Source: Streptomyces sp. NBC_01476
GTDB lineage: Bacteria > Actinomycetota > Actinomycetes > Streptomycetales > Streptomycetaceae
DNA length: 64,000 bases
NCBI RefSeq assembly: GCF_036227265.1
Contig: NZ_CP109446.1
Coordinates: 248,001-312,000 of the forward strand
Direction: 5' to 3'
Positions within the stretch are counted from its first letter, which is position 1. Every line of letters starts with the position of its first letter. Both the position numbers and the translations under genes were made by a program. The notes below the pieces were generated by a model. It had not been told where the DNA came from and did not search any database. It worked only from the letters and a program-made list of their open reading frames with translations. Shown piece by piece: positions 38,996-47,381 of the stretch.

Positions 38996-39733
38996 TCAGG
39001 CGCGGCCGGCGAGCCAGCTGAGCGCCTCCTCCGGCGAGGCCACCGACGGGACGCCGGCCGGCGGCGCGGGCCGGCGGACGAGGACGACCGGCAGGCCGGC
39101 CTCCCGGGCGGCAGTCAGCTTGGGGGCGGTGGCAGGCCCGCCGCTGTCCTTGGTGACCAGGACGTCGATGCGGTGGTCGCGGAGCAGCGCGCGTTCACCT
39201 TCGAGAGTGAACGGGCCCCGGTCGAGGAGCAGGCGGAAGCCGCGCGGCAGCGGCGGCTCAGGGGGCCGCACCATGCGGGCCACGACGGGCAGTTCCACCT
39301 CGGCGAAGGCCGCGAATCCCTGGCGGCCGGTGGTGACCAGGGCCCGGGTGCCCAGGGCCGCGAGGAGGCCGGCGGCCTCCCGGAGGGTCGCCGCGGAGTG
39401 CCAGCGGTCGCCGGGGCCCGCGCTCCAGCCGGGCCTGCGCAGGGCCAGCAGCGGGACACCGGCCGTGCCGGACGCCTCGGCGGCGTGCCGGCTGATGCCG
39501 GCCGCGAACGGGTGGGTGGCGTCCACGATCGCGTCCACGCGCTCCGCGCGCAGCCACGCGGCGAGCCCGGCCGCACCGCCGAAGCCGCCGCTGCGGACCT
39601 CGCCTTCCGGGAGCCGGGGTTCCGCGGTACGGCCGGCCAGCGAACTGGTCACCCGCCAGGCGGGGTCGGCGGCCAGCGCGGCGGCCAGCGTCCTGGCCTC
39701 CGCGGTGCCGCCGAGCACGAGCACCCGCCGCAT
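38996..39733 (-). CDS. cobK: Precorrin-6A reductase
   Basis: A 245-residue protein with the CobK/CbiJ pattern: VLVLGGTAEARTLAAAL at the N-terminus, DATHPFAAGISRHAAEA, RALVTTGRQGFAAFA and LVTKDSGGPATAPKL. It reduces precorrin-6A to dihydro-precorrin-6B with NADPH in aerobic cobalamin synthesis. Its ATG overlaps the cobF stop (ATGA). Last gene of the riboswitch operon. A 14-bp direct duplication (GAGGTCTCAG repeat, 38975-39004) overlaps the stop codon. Confidence 0.9.
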   Translation of the reverse strand: MRRVLVLGGTAEARTLAAALAADPAWRVTSSLAGRTAEPRLPEGEVRSGGFGGAAGLAAWLRAERVDAIVDATHPFAAGISRHAAEASGTAGVPLLALRRPGWSAGPGDRWHSAATLREAAGLLAALGTRALVTTGRQGFAAFAEVELPVVARMVRPPEPPLPRGFRLLLDRGPFTLEGERALLRDHRIDVLVTKDSGGPATAPKLTAAREAGLPVVLVRRPAPPAGVPSVASPEEALSWLAGRA

Positions 39734-40506
39734 CAGCGCTCGTCGGCCCTGCGCAGCAGATACGTGTCCATGATCCATCCCTTGCGGGCCCGGGCGGCGG
39801 CGCGGACGCCGCGGATCCGGTCGGCCAGTTCCCCGTCCAGCGGACCGGAGAGCAGGATCTCGTCGGGGGTGCCGAGGTAGGCGCCCCAGTAGATGTGCAG
39901 TCCCTCGCCGATGAGGTCCCCGAACGCCTGCCGCGCGTCCAGCATCACCACGACGTCGTCCACCCCGCCCGGCAGGCCCTCTTCGGAGAGCCGGCGGCCG
40001 GTGGTGATCTGCACGGGGCGGCCGACCTGGTTGAGGCCCGTGCGGTGCTTGGCGGCGAGCGACGACACACTGCTGATACCGGGTACGACCGTCCAGTCGA
40101 ACTCCGCGCCGCCTCGCGCGTGCACCTCTTCCAGGATGCCGAGCGTGCTGTCGTAGAGCGCCGGGTCGCCCCAGACCAGGAAGGCCCCGCAGGACCCGTC
40201 GGGGAGTTCTTCGGCGATCAGCCGCTGGTACACCTCGGCGCGCCGGGTGCGCCAGTCGCCGACGGCGGGCGCGTAGCCGGCGGTGGACGCGCCGCGGTCC
40301 CGTTCCGGGTCGCGGGCGACGACCACCCGGTGCGGCCGGGTCGCGTGGCGCTGGAGGAGCTGCTCGCGCAGGCCCACCAGGTCGGCCTTCTCCTCGCCCT
40401 TGTCCAGCAGGAAGAACACATCGGTACGGCCGAGGGCATCCACCGCCTGCAGGGTGAGCTGCTGCGGGTCGCCCGCGCCGATGCCGATGACGTAGATCTG
40501 CTTCAC
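39733..40506 (-). CDS. cobF: Precorrin-6A synthase (deacetylating)
   Basis: A 257-residue SAM-dependent tetrapyrrole methylase. IGIGAGDPQQLTLQA at the N-terminus, LVWGDPALYDSTLGIL and VPGISSVSSLAA are the SAM/precorrin-binding motifs, and the overall pattern is CobF-like. It methylates C1 of precorrin-5 with loss of the acetyl group, giving precorrin-6A, the substrate of the next enzyme cobK. Presence of CobF marks the oxygen-dependent pathway. The GTG start overlaps the stop of the FhuF-like gene. Confidence 0.9.
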   Translation of the reverse strand: MKQIYVIGIGAGDPQQLTLQAVDALGRTDVFFLLDKGEEKADLVGLREQLLQRHATRPHRVVVARDPERDRGASTAGYAPAVGDWRTRRAEVYQRLIAEELPDGSCGAFLVWGDPALYDSTLGILEEVHARGGAEFDWTVVPGISSVSSLAAKHRTGLNQVGRPVQITTGRRLSEEGLPGGVDDVVVMLDARQAFGDLIGEGLHIYWGAYLGTPDEILLSGPLDGELADRIRGVRAAARARKGWIMDTYLLRRADER

Positions 40507-41276
40507 GACGCGGAGTCTGGCACACGGCCGGTGGCGGGCCGCAGGTCAAGGGCGCAGTCCCCGCAGAGCGCGCCCTTGCCGCCGGGCCCGGCCCGGTAGA
40601 TCAGACAGCAGCTACGGCGGCGGAAGACGCCCTCCTCTGCCGTGCTCTCACCGGCCAGTGGCGGCCGGTCAAGCAGCAGGCCGGTGAACGCCCGGGTGCG
40701 GACGGCCAGTTCGGGCCGTGCTCGGACGAGGCTCACCGCGGCGCCGTTCACCGCCGAGGCGGTGTTGCCGCGCAGGATGTGCCGGGAGACCCCGAACGTG
40801 CCGAAGACGGCTGCCAGTTCCTCCAGCGGGCCGGCCAGCAGCCGTGCCGCCAGCAGGCCGGCGAGCGCTTCCAGGCCGGCCAGGGGCGCTCCGAGCGCGC
40901 CGGCGGGAAGTGCCAGCGGTACGGGACCGCCGAGCACCGGCTGCCAGCGCACCTCGTGCAGCGCGAACAGGAGCGGGCGCCCGAACAGTACGGCGGCGGC
41001 GAGCGCGGGCGAGACCAGCCGTGCGGCGAGTCCGAGATGCGCGACGGACGCGGCCACCCGTGGTTCGACGGCCCCGGCCGGCTGCCCGCCGGCGGCGGCG
41101 AGCCATTGCCGTACCCCGGTGACCCGGTCGCCGAGGAGCGCCGCGGACATCGGCTGCCAGCCGGCGGGCGGCGCGGCCCCGGTCTCCTCCAGGGCGAAGA
41201 ACGCGCCGAGCGCGGTGATCGCGGAGATCACCGCGGTCGGCTCCGCGTCGCCCGGCGGCGGCACGGGTGCGTTCAC
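40503..41276 (-). CDS. FhuF-like (2Fe-2S) protein in cobalt/cobalamin operon
   Basis: A 257-residue soluble protein. The C-terminus has RRSCCLIYRA followed by LCGDC, the C-C...C-x2-C pattern of the FhuF ferric-iron reductase 2Fe-2S site; the upstream part (NTASAVNGA, RAFTGLLLDRPPL) also matches FhuF-type reductases. FhuF reduces ferric siderophores. Here the gene overlaps both cbtA (GTGA) and cobF (GTGA) inside a B12-riboswitch operon, so its job is more likely reduction of cobalt or a corrinoid. That function is inference. Confidence 0.75.
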   Translation of the reverse strand: MNAPVPPPGDAEPTAVISAITALGAFFALEETGAAPPAGWQPMSAALLGDRVTGVRQWLAAAGGQPAGAVEPRVAASVAHLGLAARLVSPALAAAVLFGRPLLFALHEVRWQPVLGGPVPLALPAGALGAPLAGLEALAGLLAARLLAGPLEELAAVFGTFGVSRHILRGNTASAVNGAAVSLVRARPELAVRTRAFTGLLLDRPPLAGESTAEEGVFRRRSCCLIYRAGPGGKGALCGDCALDLRPATGRVPDSAS

Positions 41277-42133
41277 GCGGGGACCGGTGCCGGCTCCCGC
41301 GCGGCGGCGGTGCCGGGGCGGGGCTGCAGGAGGCGTTCGGCCAGCGGGGCGAAGACCAGGCCGATGGCCGTCCAGAGCAGCAACTGGGCGGCGACCGAGT
41401 AGAAGCGGAAGGAGAAGAGCACGTCCGCCGGGAAGCCCGGATAGACGATGGTGCCCTTGCCGTCGGTCAGCGGCAGCGGAGTCTCGGTGGCGTGGTCGCC
41501 GAAGTGCTCCCTGTTGTAGCCGAGGTGGCCGAATGACGGCAGGAGGAGCATGACGACGCCGATGGCGACGACGAAGGCGGCGCCGGCCAGCAGCACCGCG
41601 TTCCAGTTCCCGAAGCGCGCCTGGAGACGCTTGCCGAGCCAGGCGGCGCCGATCAGGAAGACCACCGAGCAGACCACCATGGTCAGGTAGAGGCCGCTGC
41701 GGGCCTTGATGGTCTCCTCGTGCCCGATGGCCGGCGGGTTGGCCGGGTACTTCAGGAACGGCACCAGATACATGCCGAGGAAGCCGCCGGCCGCGACGAC
41801 CAGCGCCAGGTTGCGGGCGCGCAGCGCACCGACCCGGCCGAGGCAGATCGCGTACGCGACGGCGAAGAGCGCGCCCATCGCCATACCGAAGACGATCATG
41901 CCGACGCCGATGCCGACGTCCGCCTGGATGGTGCGGCTGAACAGATCGGGGCCGGCCGCCTCGGCCGGGATGCCCGCCGCCTTGTCGAGCGCGGCCTGGG
42001 CCGCGTCCCGGCCGCTCTCGTAGTCGATCGCCCTGCCGATCTGCGGCTCGGCGAAGATCCGGGCGAAGAGGAAGGCGAGCAGCCCGCCGACTGCGCCGGC
42101 CAGCAGGCCGCGCAGGATGAGCTTCTTTTCCAT
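41273..42133 (-). CDS. cbtA: CbtA family cobalt transporter subunit
   Basis: A 286-residue membrane protein with about six helices, beginning KLILRGLLAGAVGGLLAFLFARIFAEP, which is typical of CbtA (predicted cobalt transporter). Central motifs PPAIGHEETIKARSGLY and GFPADVLFSFRFYSVAAQ carry conserved polar residues. CbtA works with the small CbtB protein encoded just upstream. Expression is under the cobalamin riboswitch 5' of cbtB, so uptake is shut off when B12 is abundant. Confidence 0.85.
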   Translation of the reverse strand: MEKKLILRGLLAGAVGGLLAFLFARIFAEPQIGRAIDYESGRDAAQAALDKAAGIPAEAAGPDLFSRTIQADVGIGVGMIVFGMAMGALFAVAYAICLGRVGALRARNLALVVAAGGFLGMYLVPFLKYPANPPAIGHEETIKARSGLYLTMVVCSVVFLIGAAWLGKRLQARFGNWNAVLLAGAAFVVAIGVVMLLLPSFGHLGYNREHFGDHATETPLPLTDGKGTIVYPGFPADVLFSFRFYSVAAQLLLWTAIGLVFAPLAERLLQPRPGTAAAREPAPVPA

Positions 42134-42195
42134 GTCGAGTTGTCCGTACGTCTCAGGTGACGGGGGTGACGTGCGTCAGTGGCGCCCGGGGGCGC

Positions 42196-42411
42196 TCAGT
42201 GGCAGGGGAAGCCGAGGAAATGACGCGCGTCGTGGACGAACTCGTGGATGTGCGTGTCCTTGCCGAAGACGGAGACGGCGCCCTGGTCGACGCCGATGAA
42301 GTAGTAGGCGGCGAGCGCCACAAGTGCGGTGCCGACGAGCCACAGTACGGCTTTGGAGACCGGCAGGACGACCGGCGTCGCGGCCGGGCGGGGAGCGGAA
42401 ATGCTGCTCAA
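42196..42411 (-). CDS. cbtB: CbtB-like cobalt transporter subunit
   Basis: A small protein of 71 residues from TTG 42411 (GAAGGAGG is seven bases upstream) or 84 from ATG 42450. One helix (AVLWLVGTALVALAAYYFIG) is followed by the diagnostic histidine-rich end IHEFVHDARHFLGFPCH, thought to bind cobalt. The TTG start is preferred because the ribosome site is strong and the ATG lies within the riboswitch expression platform. First gene of the B12-controlled operon. Confidence 0.85.
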   Translation of the reverse strand: MSSISAPRPAATPVVLPVSKAVLWLVGTALVALAAYYFIGVDQGAVSVFGKDTHIHEFVHDARHFLGFPCH

Positions 42412-42457
42412 GGTGAGCCCTCCTTCGGGGATCGTGCGTCCCTCTTCCATGGGCGTC

Positions 42458-42554
42458 GTGATGAGCGGCTGTCTGACTCACCTGCCGTCCTGGGACGGCG
42501 GGCTCACAGTGGCGCGACCGTGCTGGAGTTCCACCAGCTTCCCCGCGTCATCAC
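42458..42554 (-). ncRNA. Cobalamin (B12) riboswitch aptamer
   Basis: Read on the minus strand, the closing helix pairs GTGATGA (42548-42554) with TCATCAC (42458-42464). Between them are the conserved elements GGGAAGCTGGTG, AACTCCAGCACGGT, the B12 box GCGCCACTGTGAGC, and GTGAGTCAGAC. It lies directly upstream of cbtB and switches off the cobalt uptake/cobF-cobK operon when adenosylcobalamin is bound, probably by hiding the GAAGGAGG ribosome site about 35 bases downstream. Confidence 0.9.
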
Positions 42555-42594
42555 TACACCCAGGAGCGTAGGGGGCGGTTCTGTCATGCGTCAA

Positions 42595-44589
42595 TCAGGA
42601 CGAACGCAGCTCTGACGGGCTTTCCTGGCCGTTGTGAGCAAGCTCTCCCGGGCCCGCGGAGGTGCGGTCGGACCACGCCGCCCACAGGCGCGCGTACCGG
42701 CCGCCGGCCGCGACGAGTTCGAGGTGGCCGCCCTCCTCCACGATGCGGCCTGCCTCCATGACGACCACCCGGTCCGCGGTGGCCGCCTGCGAGAGGCGGT
42801 GCGCGACGACCAGCGCGGTGCGTCCGCGCAGCACGCGGCGGGCGGCGGCCTCCAGCGTGCGGGCGCCGTCGCTGCCGGCCTCCGCGGCGGACTCGTCGAG
42901 CACCGCGACCGGCGGATCGGCCAGTGCCAGCCGGGCCAGGGCGAGTTGCTGGGCCTGGACGGGGGTGAGTTCGGTGGCGCCGGAGCCGATCGGGGTGTCG
43001 AGCCGCTGCGGCAGGGCGCGTACCCACGGCCACGCGCCGGCCGCCTCCAGCGCGGCGGTCATGGCGGCCGCGCCGGCGTCCGGGCGCGCCAGCCGGAGGT
43101 TGCCCGCGACGGTGTCCGCGAAGACGTGGGTGTCCTGGTCGAGCAGCAGGACAGCGGGCCGTTCCTCGCCCTGGCCGTGCACGGTGACCCGGCCCGCGGT
43201 GGGCGGATGGACGCCCGCCACGATCCGGGCGAGGGTGCTCTTGCCGGCGCCGCTGGCCCCGACGAGCGTCACGTGCTCGCCGCGGGCCAGCCGCAGGCTG
43301 ACGCCGTGGAGTACGGGGTCACCGGGGACGTAGGCGTGGTGGACGTCGCGGACGGTCACCTGGGCGGGGGCGTCCGGCTCGCGGGCGGCGGGGAGCCGTC
43401 CCGGGGCCGACGCGGTGGGGAGCCGTCCCGGTGCGTCCGCGGCGGGAAGCCGTCCCGGTGCGTCCGCGGCGGGGAGCCGTCCCGGCGCCGACGCGGCGGG
43501 AAGCCGTCCCGCTGCGGACGCGGCGGCACCGGCGCTGTGGGGGCCGGACGCCTGCTGACCGTCGTCGGGGCCGGGGGCCGGGCCGCCGCGGTCGGGGCCG
43601 GGCACCAGGTCGGCGGCGCCGACGAGGCGGGCCAGGCCGGCCGCGGCCTCCTGGACCGTGGCGGCCAGGCCCAGCAGGATGTTCACCGGGTCGAAGAGGC
43701 GGATGAAGAGCAGCGCCGCCGCGGTGGCCTCGCCGACGTTCGCGCGGCCGGTGTGCACCAGCAGCCAGCCCACGGTGAGGATCAGCGCGAGACCGGTGAA
43801 CTCGGCGGCGTTGAGGCGGCCGTAGAAGCGTGACCGCAGGGTGACCGCGCGCAGGGCGAAGTCCTTGGCGACGGCGGAGCGCTGGGCGATCCGCCGGGTG
43901 TGGTCGGCGGTGAGCCGGAAGGCGCGGACGGTCTCGGCGCCGGAGACCGACTCCAGGATCTGCCGGGACCGCTCGCCGCCCGCGACCCGCTGGGCCGCGT
44001 ACAGCGGTCCGGAGTGCCGCAGGTACCAGCGCAGGGCGGCGGTCTGGATGGGCAGCGCGCAGAGTCCGGCGAGCGCGAACCGCCAGTCCAGGGCGGTGAG
44101 TCCGAGCACGGTGAAGCAGATGGTCAGCGCGGCGCCCGTGACGCTCGGCAGGACCCCGCGGACGGCGGTGCCGACCAGCGCGGCGTCGTCCCCGATCCGG
44201 GCGGCGAGGTCGCCCGCCCCGACCTGTTCGATCCGCTGCGCGGGCAGTGCGAAGGCGCGGGCGATGACCCGTTCGCGCAGCCGGGCCAGCGCGGTCTCGC
44301 CGACCTGCGCGGTGAGCGCGGCGCCCAGCGCGGTGAGCGCGGCCTGGGCCAGCGCCGCGCCGAGCAGCACGAGCGCCGCGGCGGTCACCTGCCCGCCGCC
44401 GCTCCTGCCCTGCACGGCCTCGACGATCCGCCCGAGCGCGAGCGGCCCGACCAGGCCGGTCACGGCCGCGGCCACGAAGACCGCCGCGGTCAGCCAGGCA
44501 CGTGCCCTTTGCGGGCGGATGAGTTCGGCCGCCACCCGGCCGGTCCTGCGGGCGGTGGCGGTGGGCAGCAGCTCGCGGTCGGCGCTCAT
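42595..44589 (-). CDS. ABC exporter half-transporter with intact Walker A and degenerate signature
   Basis: A 664-residue protein: six-helix membrane domain (about 20-320), a linker with five 9-residue repeats (APGRLPAAD type, about 360-405) and an ATPase domain. Walker A GASGAGKST is intact, but the LSGGQ signature is replaced by ELTPVQAQQLALAR and the Walker B is followed by DESAAEAG. Alone it cannot form a standard ATP site, but its partner encoded upstream has the opposite defects. Its ATG overlaps that partner's stop. Likely a heterodimeric efflux pump, perhaps for a siderophore given the iron genes next door. Confidence 0.85.
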   Translation of the reverse strand: MSADRELLPTATARRTGRVAAELIRPQRARAWLTAAVFVAAAVTGLVGPLALGRIVEAVQGRSGGGQVTAAALVLLGAALAQAALTALGAALTAQVGETALARLRERVIARAFALPAQRIEQVGAGDLAARIGDDAALVGTAVRGVLPSVTGAALTICFTVLGLTALDWRFALAGLCALPIQTAALRWYLRHSGPLYAAQRVAGGERSRQILESVSGAETVRAFRLTADHTRRIAQRSAVAKDFALRAVTLRSRFYGRLNAAEFTGLALILTVGWLLVHTGRANVGEATAAALLFIRLFDPVNILLGLAATVQEAAAGLARLVGAADLVPGPDRGGPAPGPDDGQQASGPHSAGAAASAAGRLPAASAPGRLPAADAPGRLPAADAPGRLPTASAPGRLPAAREPDAPAQVTVRDVHHAYVPGDPVLHGVSLRLARGEHVTLVGASGAGKSTLARIVAGVHPPTAGRVTVHGQGEERPAVLLLDQDTHVFADTVAGNLRLARPDAGAAAMTAALEAAGAWPWVRALPQRLDTPIGSGATELTPVQAQQLALARLALADPPVAVLDESAAEAGSDGARTLEAAARRVLRGRTALVVAHRLSQAATADRVVVMEAGRIVEEGGHLELVAAGGRYARLWAAWSDRTSAGPGELAHNGQESPSELRSS
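43386..43520 (-). repeat. Five in-frame 27-bp repeats in ABC linker
   Basis: AGCCGTCCC recurs at 43394, 43421, 43448, 43475 and 43502, exactly 27 bp apart. Each unit encodes nine residues of the form APGRLPAA[D/S]. The array lengthens the flexible segment between membrane and ATPase domains and is the kind of tandem repeat that can change copy number. Confidence 0.9.
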
Positions 44590-46340
44590 CCGAACACCGC
44601 CGCGCGGTAGGCCGGTTCGGTGGCGGCGAGGACGGCGTGCGGCCCCGCGGCGGCGACCGCGCCCGACATGATCAGCACCACCCGGTCACAACTGCCCAGC
44701 AGGATCGGCGAGGAGGTCAGCACGAATGTCGTACGGCCCCGCCGGGCGAGCCTGAGCGTGCGGGCCATCCGCGATTCGGTCACCGGGTCGACGGCGGTGG
44801 TCGGCTCGTCCAGTACGAGGACGGGCGGGTCGGCGTGCAACGCCCGTGCCAGCAGGACGCGTTGGCGCTGGCCGCCGGAGAGGAAGGCGCCGCGCTCGCC
44901 GACCCGGGTGCCGGGCGGCGCGGGCAGCAGCCCGGCGAGCGCCCCTGCCGGGCCGGGGTCGGTGGCCCACCCGGAGCGCACGTTGTCCAGGACGGTGCCG
45001 TCGAAGAGGAACGGCTGGTGCGGGACGACGAGCACGGCGGCGCGTTTCCCGTCCTCGCTCCACGACCGCAACGGCGCCCCGTCGAGCCGCACGTCGCCGG
45101 TGTCCGGCAGGAGGTCGCCGCGCAGGCAGCCGAGCAGTTCCGCGGCGGCGCCGGGGTCGGGGACCACCAGCCCCACCTGCTCCCCCGCCCCGGCCGCCAG
45201 CGTCACGCCGCGCAGCCGCCCGTACGACAGCCGGTCGATCTCCAGTGCGCCGGTCACCGGCCCACTGGCGGGACGCGGTACGTCCGGCACCGCGGACGAC
45301 TCCCGCTCCGGGGGCTCCTGTTCCAGCAGTGCGGCCACCCGGCCGGCCGAGGCGCGGGCGCGGGCGGCGTCGGGGGGTACGGACATCAGGGACTGGGTGG
45401 GGCCGATGAGGAACTGGCACAGGCCGGTGCAGGCGACGAGGTCGCCGAGGCCGATGCGGCCGTCCATGGCGAGGTGGCCGGCGACGAAGGCGACGGCGGT
45501 GACCAGGACTCCGCCGAGCAGGACCGCGGCGCCGTCCAGCAGCGCCTCGAAGCGGGCCGCGGTGACGGTGGCCCGCAGGCTGGCCCGGTTGGCCTGCGCG
45601 TAACGGGCGTAGGCGGGGGCTTCGGCCCGCAGTCCCTTGAGGACGCGCAGGCCGGCCACGTAGTCGACAGCGGTGCCGGCCGCCCGGGCTGCGGCGGCCT
45701 GTTCGGCGGCGCCCCGGCGTTCCAGCGGGCGGCCGAGCCGGTTCATGGCGACCAGCACCGCGGGGGTGCCGAGCAGCACCAGCAGGCCGAGCGGCACCGA
45801 CATCCGCAGCAGCAGCGCGGCGCCGAGCGCGAGTGCGACCACGGCGGACACTCCCTGGACGGCGAAGGCCGCGAAGCGGCCGATCTGCTGGGTGTCCGAG
45901 ACGGCGACGGACATCAGCTCGCCGGGCAGCCGGTCCCGGCCGGCCGTGTGACCGGGTGCCAGCAGCCGGCCGGAGAGGCGTACCCGCAGGGCGTGCGCCG
46001 CCTCCTCGGCGGCGGCGACGGTGGCCCGCGAGCCGAAGCGGAAGCAGAGCGAGAGGGCGAGGAAGTCGGCGACGAGCACCGCGATCCAGCCGCCCAGCGC
46101 CGTCGCGCTGCCGCCGTCCACCGCCCGGTCCACCACCACGCCGACCAGCACCGGCACGAACGCCTCGAAGACCTGGTGTCCGCTGCGCAGCAGCATGGCG
46201 GCCGCCAGGGGCCGGCGCACTCCGGCGGCGGCTTCCCTGAGCACCGACCGGGGCGGCCGGCCCGCGGCGGGCGCCGCGCCGGGCGGAGGTGCGCCGAGCC
46301 CGCCGGCGGGGGCGGGCGGGGCGTCCGTGGCTTCGGACAT
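44586..46340 (-). CDS. ABC exporter half-transporter with intact signature and lost Walker A
   Basis: A 584-residue protein: membrane domain (about 35-310) then an ATPase domain. The signature FLSGGQRQRVLLARAL and Walker B LVLDEPTTAVD are canonical, but the Walker A position reads GLVVPDPGAAAELL, with no Gly-Lys-Ser/Thr. ATP binding at its own P-loop is therefore unlikely. Paired with the coupled downstream subunit it completes one good composite site (partner P-loop plus this LSGGQ). GGTGACG-rich leader with 10-bp repeats precedes ATG 46340; divergent from an AraC regulator. Confidence 0.85.
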   Translation of the reverse strand: MSEATDAPPAPAGGLGAPPPGAAPAAGRPPRSVLREAAAGVRRPLAAAMLLRSGHQVFEAFVPVLVGVVVDRAVDGGSATALGGWIAVLVADFLALSLCFRFGSRATVAAAEEAAHALRVRLSGRLLAPGHTAGRDRLPGELMSVAVSDTQQIGRFAAFAVQGVSAVVALALGAALLLRMSVPLGLLVLLGTPAVLVAMNRLGRPLERRGAAEQAAAARAAGTAVDYVAGLRVLKGLRAEAPAYARYAQANRASLRATVTAARFEALLDGAAVLLGGVLVTAVAFVAGHLAMDGRIGLGDLVACTGLCQFLIGPTQSLMSVPPDAARARASAGRVAALLEQEPPERESSAVPDVPRPASGPVTGALEIDRLSYGRLRGVTLAAGAGEQVGLVVPDPGAAAELLGCLRGDLLPDTGDVRLDGAPLRSWSEDGKRAAVLVVPHQPFLFDGTVLDNVRSGWATDPGPAGALAGLLPAPPGTRVGERGAFLSGGQRQRVLLARALHADPPVLVLDEPTTAVDPVTESRMARTLRLARRGRTTFVLTSSPILLGSCDRVVLIMSGAVAAAGPHAVLAATEPAYRAAVFG

Positions 46341-46390: not shown

Positions 46391-46538
46391 GCCCGGGTGG
46401 GTCCCGCTGAACCGGGTCGGAGCGTGGCAGGCGGCGCCTACCAGCGGTTTCACCGTCCGGTGCGGGACAGCGGCCGCGCGGTCCCCGGCCGAGGCTATGC
46501 CGTGGCCGGTTGGCACGGATGCGCTATCTTGCAGACTC

Positions 46539-47381
46539 ATGTCGCTCAACAGCCAGACCGATCCGGTGCCGCCGCCCGTCGAGGCGCTGCGTGTCGTCAA
46601 CTTCGACATGGTGCGCGGCCAGCACTTCGGGGAGCACGAACACGACACGCACCAACTGGTGTGGGCCCCGGTCGGCGTGCTGACCGTGGACGTCGCCGAC
46701 CACTCCTGGGTGCTGCCGCCGTCCCTCGCGCTGTGGATTCCGGCCGGGGTGCCGCACACCACCGGCGCGACTCGGCACGCGCAGATGCGCAGCGTGTACG
46801 TGCGCCCGCAGGCCTGCCCGGTGCGGTGGGCGCAGCCGACGGTGGTCGCCGTCGGGCCGCTGCTGCGCGAGCTGGTGACGCATCTGGCCGTACCGGACCT
46901 GGACCCGGGCGCGAAAGCCCGGGCAGAGGCGGTGATGTTCGACCTGCTCCGGCCGGTCGGGGTGATGACCATCGAACTGCCGATGCCGTCGGACGACCGG
47001 GCCCGGCAGGTCGCCGAGGCACTGCTGGCCATGCCGTCCGACCAGCGGCCGCTGGAGGAGTGGGGGCGGGCGGTGGGCGCCAGCGCCCGCACTCTTGCCC
47101 GGCTCTTCGGCGCGGAGACCGGCATGTCGTTCGGCCGCTGGCGGACCAGGGCGCGGCTGCGGGCGAGCCTTGAGCACATGGCGGCCCACCGGCCGCTGGC
47201 CGCGGTCGCCCACCAGGTGGGGTACACCAGCTCCAGCTCGTTCATCGCCGCCTTCCGGCAGGAGACCGGCCGGACTCCCGGGTCCTACTTCGCCGCCGTT
47301 CCGCAACCGGGCGGCCCGCACCGTCACAGTGACCGCAGCGCCTTCTCGAAGTCGTCGAGCGCGGCGAGCGCGTCCTCGTAA
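46539..47381 (+). CDS. AraC-family transcriptional regulator
   Basis: A 280-residue protein. An N-terminal cupin-like sensor (HEHDTHQLVWAPVGVLTV, WIPAGVPHTT) precedes two AraC helix-turn-helices (VGASARTLARLFGAETGMSF and LAAVAHQVGYTSSSSFIAAF, then RQETGRTPGSYF). Divergent from the ABC exporter pair and convergent with the siderophore-binding protein gene, it likely regulates one or both, perhaps with a siderophore as coinducer. TATCTT (46525-46530) ends eight bases before the ATG, so the message has little or no leader. Its 3' end overlaps the facing gene by 58 bases. Confidence 0.85.
   Translation: MSLNSQTDPVPPPVEALRVVNFDMVRGQHFGEHEHDTHQLVWAPVGVLTVDVADHSWVLPPSLALWIPAGVPHTTGATRHAQMRSVYVRPQACPVRWAQPTVVAVGPLLRELVTHLAVPDLDPGAKARAEAVMFDLLRPVGVMTIELPMPSDDRARQVAEALLAMPSDQRPLEEWGRAVGASARTLARLFGAETGMSFGRWRTRARLRASLEHMAAHRPLAAVAHQVGYTSSSSFIAAFRQETGRTPGSYFAAVPQPGGPHRHSDRSAFSKSSSAASASS

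What the first reader, a model, noticed from the sequence alone, without database searches (positions are those of the whole stretch)
40503..42554. FhuF-like 2Fe-2S protein embedded in a B12-riboswitch cobalt/corrin operon
The riboswitch is followed by cbtB, cbtA, an FhuF-like gene, cobF and cobK, with stop-start overlaps binding the FhuF-like gene to cbtA on one side and cobF on the other. FhuF proteins are siderophore reductases, so a role in cobalt or corrinoid reduction is suggested. Reduction of Co(II) to Co(I) before adenosylation is a step whose enzyme is often unassigned in actinomycetes.
Basis: partly seen in the sequence, partly recalled or inferred. Interest (0 to 1): 0.75.

Follow-up and report, generated by a model that had tools for sequence, protein, structure and literature searches.

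The report
FhuF-fold corrinoid reductase of actinomycetes
A gene for a protein predicted to have the fold of the iron-siderophore reductase FhuF sits behind a predicted vitamin-B12 riboswitch, between a predicted cobalt-transport gene and corrin-ring genes; about half of its sampled actinobacterial relatives also lie near B12 genes or predicted B12 switches, so it likely is an electron-transfer enzyme that would reduce the cobalt of B12 or its precursors, a step that seems often to lack an assigned enzyme in this group.

Summary

The B12 link is a family trait. Of 76 FhuF-like loci sampled across the class without regard to context, 37 have a B12 riboswitch or B12 gene within 7 kb, against 0 of 40 control stretches (p 3e-9). 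Contexts vary: cbtBA, cobN, cobT/U/S, B12-switched FecBCD operons and, in named loci, diol dehydratase and methylmalonyl-CoA mutase. Three genomes without a CbtA match keep the gene behind a riboswitch. cobN occurs in 92 of 99 genomes with the family and 74 of 196 without.

Best reading: a corrinoid (cobalt) reductase. Activity is untested, half of the loci show no B12 context, and reduction of Co(III) chelates during cobalt uptake is the main rival.

The parts
42446..42567 (-). cobalamin riboswitch aptamer (RF00174-like, short actinobacterial form)
   Evidence: cmscan E 4.5e-6, 31.0 bits, gathering 31.5; model R1 116 bits, but this sequence was in R1's training set; 31.0 bits again in the genome-wide search
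42196..42411 (-). cbtB, with the likely TTG start at 42411 (ORF as listed begins ATG 42450)
   Evidence: PF09489 32.8 bits; start inferred from GGAGG and frame in the sequence
41273..42133 (-). cbtA, predicted cobalt transporter subunit
   Evidence: PF09490 259.3 bits; TIGR02458 only 22.3 bits against a cut-off of 182.9
40503..41276 (-). FhuF-like gene, 257 aa, GTG start; overlaps cbtA and cobF by 4 nt each
40554..40610 (-). CC-x13-C-x2-C predicted [2Fe-2S] motif, residues 223-241
   Evidence: translation; the four cysteines are invariant in the 25 aligned sequences
39733..40506 (-). cobF, precorrin-6A synthase
   Evidence: TIGR02434 341.4 bits, cut-off 195.8
38996..39733 (-). cobK, precorrin-6A reductase
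   Evidence: PF02571 243.9 bits; NF005968 315.2 bits

Best explanation
The 257-residue protein has the FhuF cysteine motif and a predicted FhuF fold, and it likely is a corrinoid reductase that would pass single electrons from a predicted [2Fe-2S] cluster to the cobalt of B12 or of a B12 precursor. Proposed cycle (inferred): when B12 is low the riboswitch would let the operon be expressed; CbtAB would bring in cobalt; CobF and CobK act on the ring before cobalt insertion; after CobNST inserts Co(II), the FhuF-like protein would keep the corrin cobalt reduced and, with the corrin four-coordinate on the adenosyltransferase, could deliver Co(I) for adenosylation. Relatives beside importers, diol dehydratase or methylmalonyl-CoA mutase would do the same for imported or inactivated cobalamin. 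In a few loci a small cysteine-rich, ferredoxin-like gene next door is a possible electron donor. Shown: gene order, overlaps, motif, predicted fold, and the association with predicted riboswitches and B12 genes, with controls. Inferred: cluster, substrate, direction and partner.
Against: 39 of 76 class-sample loci show neither riboswitch nor panel gene within 7 kb, among them a Nocardiopsis-like group and a Streptomyces group (L155-L159). No activity has been tested. E. coli FhuF, the only FhuF among the solved structures listed, acts on ferric siderophores. In the window's own subgroup the commonest partner is the cobalt transporter, and cobN recurs, which fits cobalt supply as well. No riboswitch was found near the diol dehydratase loci, L064 or L077, and G407, a class genome with the mycobacterial-type diol dehydratase, has no FhuF-like hit at E 1e-10. 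The cobN association is not corrected for kinship. CobR itself is called a possibly non-specific flavoenzyme (PMC8123684, passage), so a dedicated reductase may not be needed.
Confidence: 0.5

Rival explanations
1. It reduces Co(III) bound to a chelator or siderophore after uptake, so that labile Co(II) reaches the cobaltochelatase; the analogue of ferric-siderophore reduction for cobalt.
For: cbtA co-directional and directly upstream in 42 of 80 close relatives; CobN near the gene in L129 and L028 and within 7 kb in L119, L125, L126, L132, L137; FecBCD-type operons ending in the gene lie behind B12 riboswitches (L096, L126, L130, L132-L134, L136, L137, L139, L142, L146); the predicted fold is that of a siderophore reductase.
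Against: Contexts with no cobalt-supply step: diol dehydratase, mutAB, cobT/U/S, bluB; retention in nine genomes without a CbtA match, though other cobalt transporters were not searched for; two genomes of one genus (G386, G392) have the gene but no CobN match, one with a CobQ-like gene nearby.
Confidence: 0.25
2. It is an ordinary ferric-siderophore or general iron reductase that has come under B12 control by chance or for iron sparing.
For: Motif and fold of FhuF; the FecBCD transporters also match iron-siderophore models; in S. coelicolor SCO6158, with an FhuF-type C-terminal motif, is divergent to a gene with a putative site of the iron regulator DmdR1 (PMC12161575, passage); two ABC exporter-type genes and an AraC-type regulator lie upstream of the window operon.
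Against: Misses the FhuF equivalog cut-off (12.9 against 63.85 bits); repeated B12 contexts against none in 40 controls. The permease in L136 scores better with BtuC models (264.7 bits) than with FhuB models (222.4 at most), though best with an F420-0 transporter model (307.6), and all are under their cut-offs.
Confidence: 0.13
3. It is a one-electron carrier or repair factor for B12 enzymes, for example removing an upper ligand from cobalamin, rather than the reductase that feeds adenosylation.
For: Placement by diol dehydratase reactivase and, in L068, PduO and in importer-like operons.
Against: Does not explain placement with cobF/cobK, cobN and cbtBA.
Confidence: 0.1

Closest known systems
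E. coli FhuF, ferric-siderophore reductase (7qp5)
   Different: about 14-16% identity; cysteine spacing x13 not x10; B12 rather than siderophore neighbours; TIGR03951 cut-off not reached
[quoted passage not shown]
   Same: proposed step, Co(II) to Co(I) before CobO
   Different: CobR is a flavoprotein (PMC8123684 passage); the only Pfam match here up to E 1 is FhuF_C
PduS, cobalamin reductase of the propanediol operon (recalled)
   Same: relatives sit by diol dehydratase and, in L068, a PduO-type adenosyltransferase
   Different: no Pfam or NCBIfam match other than FhuF-type ones
CbtAB predicted cobalt transporter operons
   Same: cbtB-cbtA behind a B12 riboswitch
   Different: PMC2667541 discusses CbtAB; the term FhuF does not occur in its main text (find)

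Membership tests
FhuF siderophore-iron reductase | C-terminal 2Fe-2S motif PF11575 | tested here: met
   23.1 bits, cut-off 20.5
FhuF siderophore-iron reductase | FhuF fold | tested here: met
FhuF siderophore-iron reductase | TIGR03951 equivalog score | tested here: not met
   12.9 bits against 63.85
FhuF siderophore-iron reductase | CC-x10-C-x2-C spacing | tested here: not met
   x13 in the window; x10 in E. coli FhuF
FhuF siderophore-iron reductase | reduction of ferric siderophores | not testable with these tools
   needs protein
CobR | flavin-binding reductase domain | tested here: not met
   Pfam and NCBIfam scans show only FhuF-type matches
Cobalamin riboswitch RF00174 | gathering score 31.5 | tested here: inconclusive
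   31.0 bits, E 4.5e-6, full-length match to model positions 1-189
CbtAB cobalt transporter | PF09490 and PF09489 | tested here: met
   259.3 and 32.8 bits; the TIGR02458/02459 cut-offs are not reached
corrinoid reductase (function) | reduction of corrinoid cobalt | not testable with these tools
   inferred from context only

The most novel reading that the evidence does not exclude
Actinobacteria use an FhuF-fold iron-sulfur protein, B12-switched in many of them, as their corrinoid reductase: one family that serves de novo synthesis, salvage and repair, and that fills the Co(II) to Co(I) gap left by the absence of CobR.
Probability: 0.38. Interest if true: 0.82.

Novelty: new variant of a known kind. 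Interest (0 to 1): 0.72.

Why it matters
The reduction of corrin cobalt before adenosylation has few named enzymes in aerobic B12 makers (recalled), and the cobR row is blank in the table parts seen of one mycobacterial survey (PMC8192938, passages). A family that recurs beside B12 synthesis, import-like operons and B12-dependent enzymes gives a single candidate that can be tested with one purified protein. If right, a fold known for iron release would have a second metal chemistry, and genes now named ferric reductase in actinobacteria would need a new look.

Tried and rejected
Reading the FecBCD operons as siderophore loci and so as counter-examples: dropped after B12 riboswitches were found before eleven of them. 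L147 and L125 have the transporter genes with only a weak or divergent riboswitch hit.

Cysteine spacing x13 as a marker of B12 linkage: rejected, since cbt-linked L086, L087, L090, L093 have x10.

Sequence searches against the PDB: phmmer found nothing; the A1 profile listed 7qp5 only at E 0.83 over the C-terminus, below unrelated hydrolases. So the FhuF assignment rests on the motif and the fold comparison. The ferredoxin-like neighbour (cluster 47) matches no Pfam family in L002, L003 or L108, no NCBIfam family in the four tried and in the PDB only a hydrogenase subunit at E 0.42, then dehaloperoxidases; its name is by eye.

The Rfam gathering scan found no riboswitch; resolved with the E-value mode. 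A strict regular expression found one and was loosened.

Diol dehydratase across the class: 16 of 295 genomes have it. Two of them (G171, G311) also have an FhuF-like hit, on another contig, and G407 has none. So the diol dehydratase link rests on six named mycobacterial loci of one clade.

Plasmid search: four records, all under 60% identity, two of them covering 92% of the query.

The tree used FastTree; L060 and L069 are not in it because rows under 150 residues were skipped. E. coli FhuF is a very long branch, so the root is unsure.

Full report

Spread of the operon. A scan of genome contigs gave 216 relatives, of which the best 80 were fetched. cbtA is co-directional and less than 300 bp upstream in 42 of 80 (two are remnants), and adjacent on the other strand in 2 more. 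Beyond cbtB-cbtA-fhuF the neighbourhood is largely not shared: apart from clusters 0 to 2 (the gene itself, cbtA, cbtB), the largest gene cluster spans only 9 loci. cobF and cobK follow in only a few Actinacidiphila and Streptomyces loci (L004, L013, L026, L058, L060). A co-directional riboswitch lies upstream in 44 of 80; this figure is partly circular, since the model was trained on 28 such elements from these loci plus the window. In the order sample, 121 of 147 genomes have a relative, of which 14 score 223 bits or more and the rest 150 or less. cbtA is adjacent in 10 of those 14 (by eye).

Wider sample. To escape that bias, 295 genomes of the class were searched: 99 have a relative at E 1e-10. 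From them 76 loci in 75 genomes were fetched with 7 kb on each side where the contig allowed (L084-L159): 68 of the 74 matches outside the window's family and, of the 26 genomes in it, the 8 with the best scores after the window's own. Left out were six low-scoring matches outside the family and 18 genomes of the family. Context played no part in the choice. The riboswitch model, trained on none of them, gives a hit of at least 28 bits in 26 of 76 (25 at 30 bits); the 28-bit line was set after the hits were seen. 40 control stretches of similar length, taken at arbitrary offsets in some of the same genomes (six used twice; one, G052, from the order sample), give none; their best hit is 23.7 bits, and all three weak hits are in one locus. 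A panel of cbt, cob, diol dehydratase, adenosyltransferase and mutase proteins hits 24 of 76 and 0 of 40. Either kind of evidence: 37 of 76 against 0 of 40, p 2.7e-9 (the control figure entered there is the panel count, which is 0, like the riboswitch count at 28 bits). Only 1 of the 76 has cbtA directly upstream and co-directional. BluB was not in the panel; it lies near the gene in L130, and the same cluster includes L131, which is counted as negative.

Kinds of context. (a) cbtBA. (b) CobN close by: L129 (gene, riboswitch, cobN, cobF) and L028 (cbtB, cbtA, gene, cobK, cobN). (c) cobT, cobU or cobS within 7 kb in seven loci of one clade: L085, L088, L089, L091, L095, L099, L101. (d) FecBCD-type ABC operons ending in the gene, with a B12 riboswitch at their head: L096, L126, L130, L132, L133, L134, L136, L137, L139, L142, L146 (Pfam on L136, L137, L139). 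In L126 and L134 the FhuF-like part lies in one open frame with the upstream ATPase gene. In L126, L132 and L137 a cobN lies on the far side of the operon. (e) Riboswitch directly before the gene: L140, L144, L103, L108, L152, L153, L025; in L103 and L108 a small cysteine-rich gene follows. (f) Diol dehydratase with its reactivase in six mycobacterial loci, and a PduO-type adenosyltransferase in L068; no riboswitch hit there. (g) mutAB beside it in L064 and L152. (h) A cobS-cobU-cobD and cobK cluster in L077.

Losses. In L008, L014 and L038 riboswitch and gene remain while cbtB and cbtA are gone or down to fragments (those of L038 by eye only), and L001 keeps a cbtA remnant. In 24 hand-picked genomes reached by handle, PF09490 has no match at E 1e-8 in those of L001, L014, L025, L027, L035, L037, L038, L044 and L065 (nine with the window-type gene), while L008's genome has another CbtA elsewhere. 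Completeness is not told for these drafts. All 24 have cobN. In the class sample cobN is found in 92 of 99 genomes with the family and 74 of 196 without; this is not corrected for kinship. The seven exceptions are G171, G233, G241, G257, G320, G386, G392; four of them have only weak FhuF-like hits (48-67 bits).

Tree. In 160 rows the window falls in a clade of 93 (local support 97). Of its 21 class-sample rows 16 have B12 context; of the other 55 class-sample rows 21 do (counted from the labels). The B12 label needs 29 changes on the tree; cbt 19, riboswitch 22, cob genes 15, mutAB 4, diol dehydratase 1. So contexts were gained or lost many times around one protein family.

Own genome. The window is 248001-312000 of an 8.397 Mb contig. 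RF00174 finds five places: before metE (by eye, L164), before a cobD gene (by eye, L165) near cobN at 1.739-1.745 Mb, the window operon, and two weaker ones with no clear B12 gene. A second FhuF_C protein lies at 504164-504226, with no B12 gene seen by eye in the 3 kb fetched.

How it likely works. The pieces fit a corrinoid reductase. Among the B12-linked loci, the neighbours make a corrinoid, import cobalt or probably a corrinoid, or use adenosylcobalamin. The common need is reduction of cobalt: Co(II) to Co(I) on the adenosyltransferase, or Co(III) to Co(II) for imported and oxidised forms. The E. coli FhuF potential, -0.36 V at pH 7.4 (PMC8068687, passages), would suit the second easily and the first only for a four-coordinate corrin (recalled chemistry). 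In aerobic makers the step is given to CobR, a flavoenzyme that may be non-specific (PMC8123684, passage); the cobR row is blank in the table parts seen of PMC8192938.

What remains open. The main rival is reduction of Co(III) chelates for cobalt supply. It fits (a), (b) and (d) but not (c), (f), (g). About half of the sampled loci show no B12 context, so the family may hold more than one function.

In print. Searches of the held open-access library for FhuF with cobalamin, CbtA/CbtB with cobF, CbtA with cobalt transporter, FhuF with 2Fe-2S, siderophore and Streptomyces, CobR with adenosyltransferase in actinobacteria, FhuF with riboswitch and mycobacteria with cobalamin riboswitch showed no listing that proposes this link; three more, cobalamin reductase with siderophore reductase, corrinoid reductase with iron-sulfur and adenosyltransferase and ferric iron reductase with cobalamin, returned no paper. 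Passages, not whole papers, were seen in PMC7689651, PMC2667541, PMC12161575, PMC8123684, PMC8068687, PMC4531530, PMC12713380, PMC8088520 and PMC8192938. Most subscription papers are not covered.

Noticed in passing
window 42595-46340 (-) and 46437-47378 (+): Two half-size ABC exporter-type genes upstream of the riboswitch and an AraC-type regulator beyond them; by recall such sets occur with siderophores. In one search no fetched relative shows this pair directly before cbtB.
   Followed up: partly
L130:8373-9038 and its cluster in L131, L133, L136, L142: BluB (dimethylbenzimidazole synthase, 240.6 bits in L130) lies near the FhuF-like gene, close to a LamB/YcsF-like gene (by eye) and metal ABC genes.
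   Followed up: partly
L126:5882-7714 and L134:5969-7726: The FhuF-like part is in one open frame with the ABC transporter ATPase, which looks like a fusion of importer ATPase and reductase.
   Followed up: no
L002:8780-9178, L003:6797-7240, L103:6594-6929, L108:6499-6876: A small cysteine-rich protein family, ferredoxin-like by eye, recurs beside the FhuF-like gene or behind a B12 riboswitch; no NCBIfam match in the four, no Pfam match in the three tried; alignment.
   Followed up: partly
L112, L115, L118, L121, L122, L124, L127, L072: A clade of FhuF-like proteins with a conserved neighbourhood but no panel B12 gene or riboswitch found in the seven class-sample loci; function there may differ.
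   Followed up: no
window 40503-41276: The protein database holds a 175-residue frameshifted version of this same gene from a 10,081-base contig (P0049), probably an assembly difference.
   Followed up: no
L061:3244-7883 and similar mycobacterial loci: Diol dehydratase operon with reactivase (large subunit 992 bits); G311 and G407 carry a copy scoring about 977 bits while the other 15 copies in the class sample score 572-786, so two types seem to exist.
   Followed up: no
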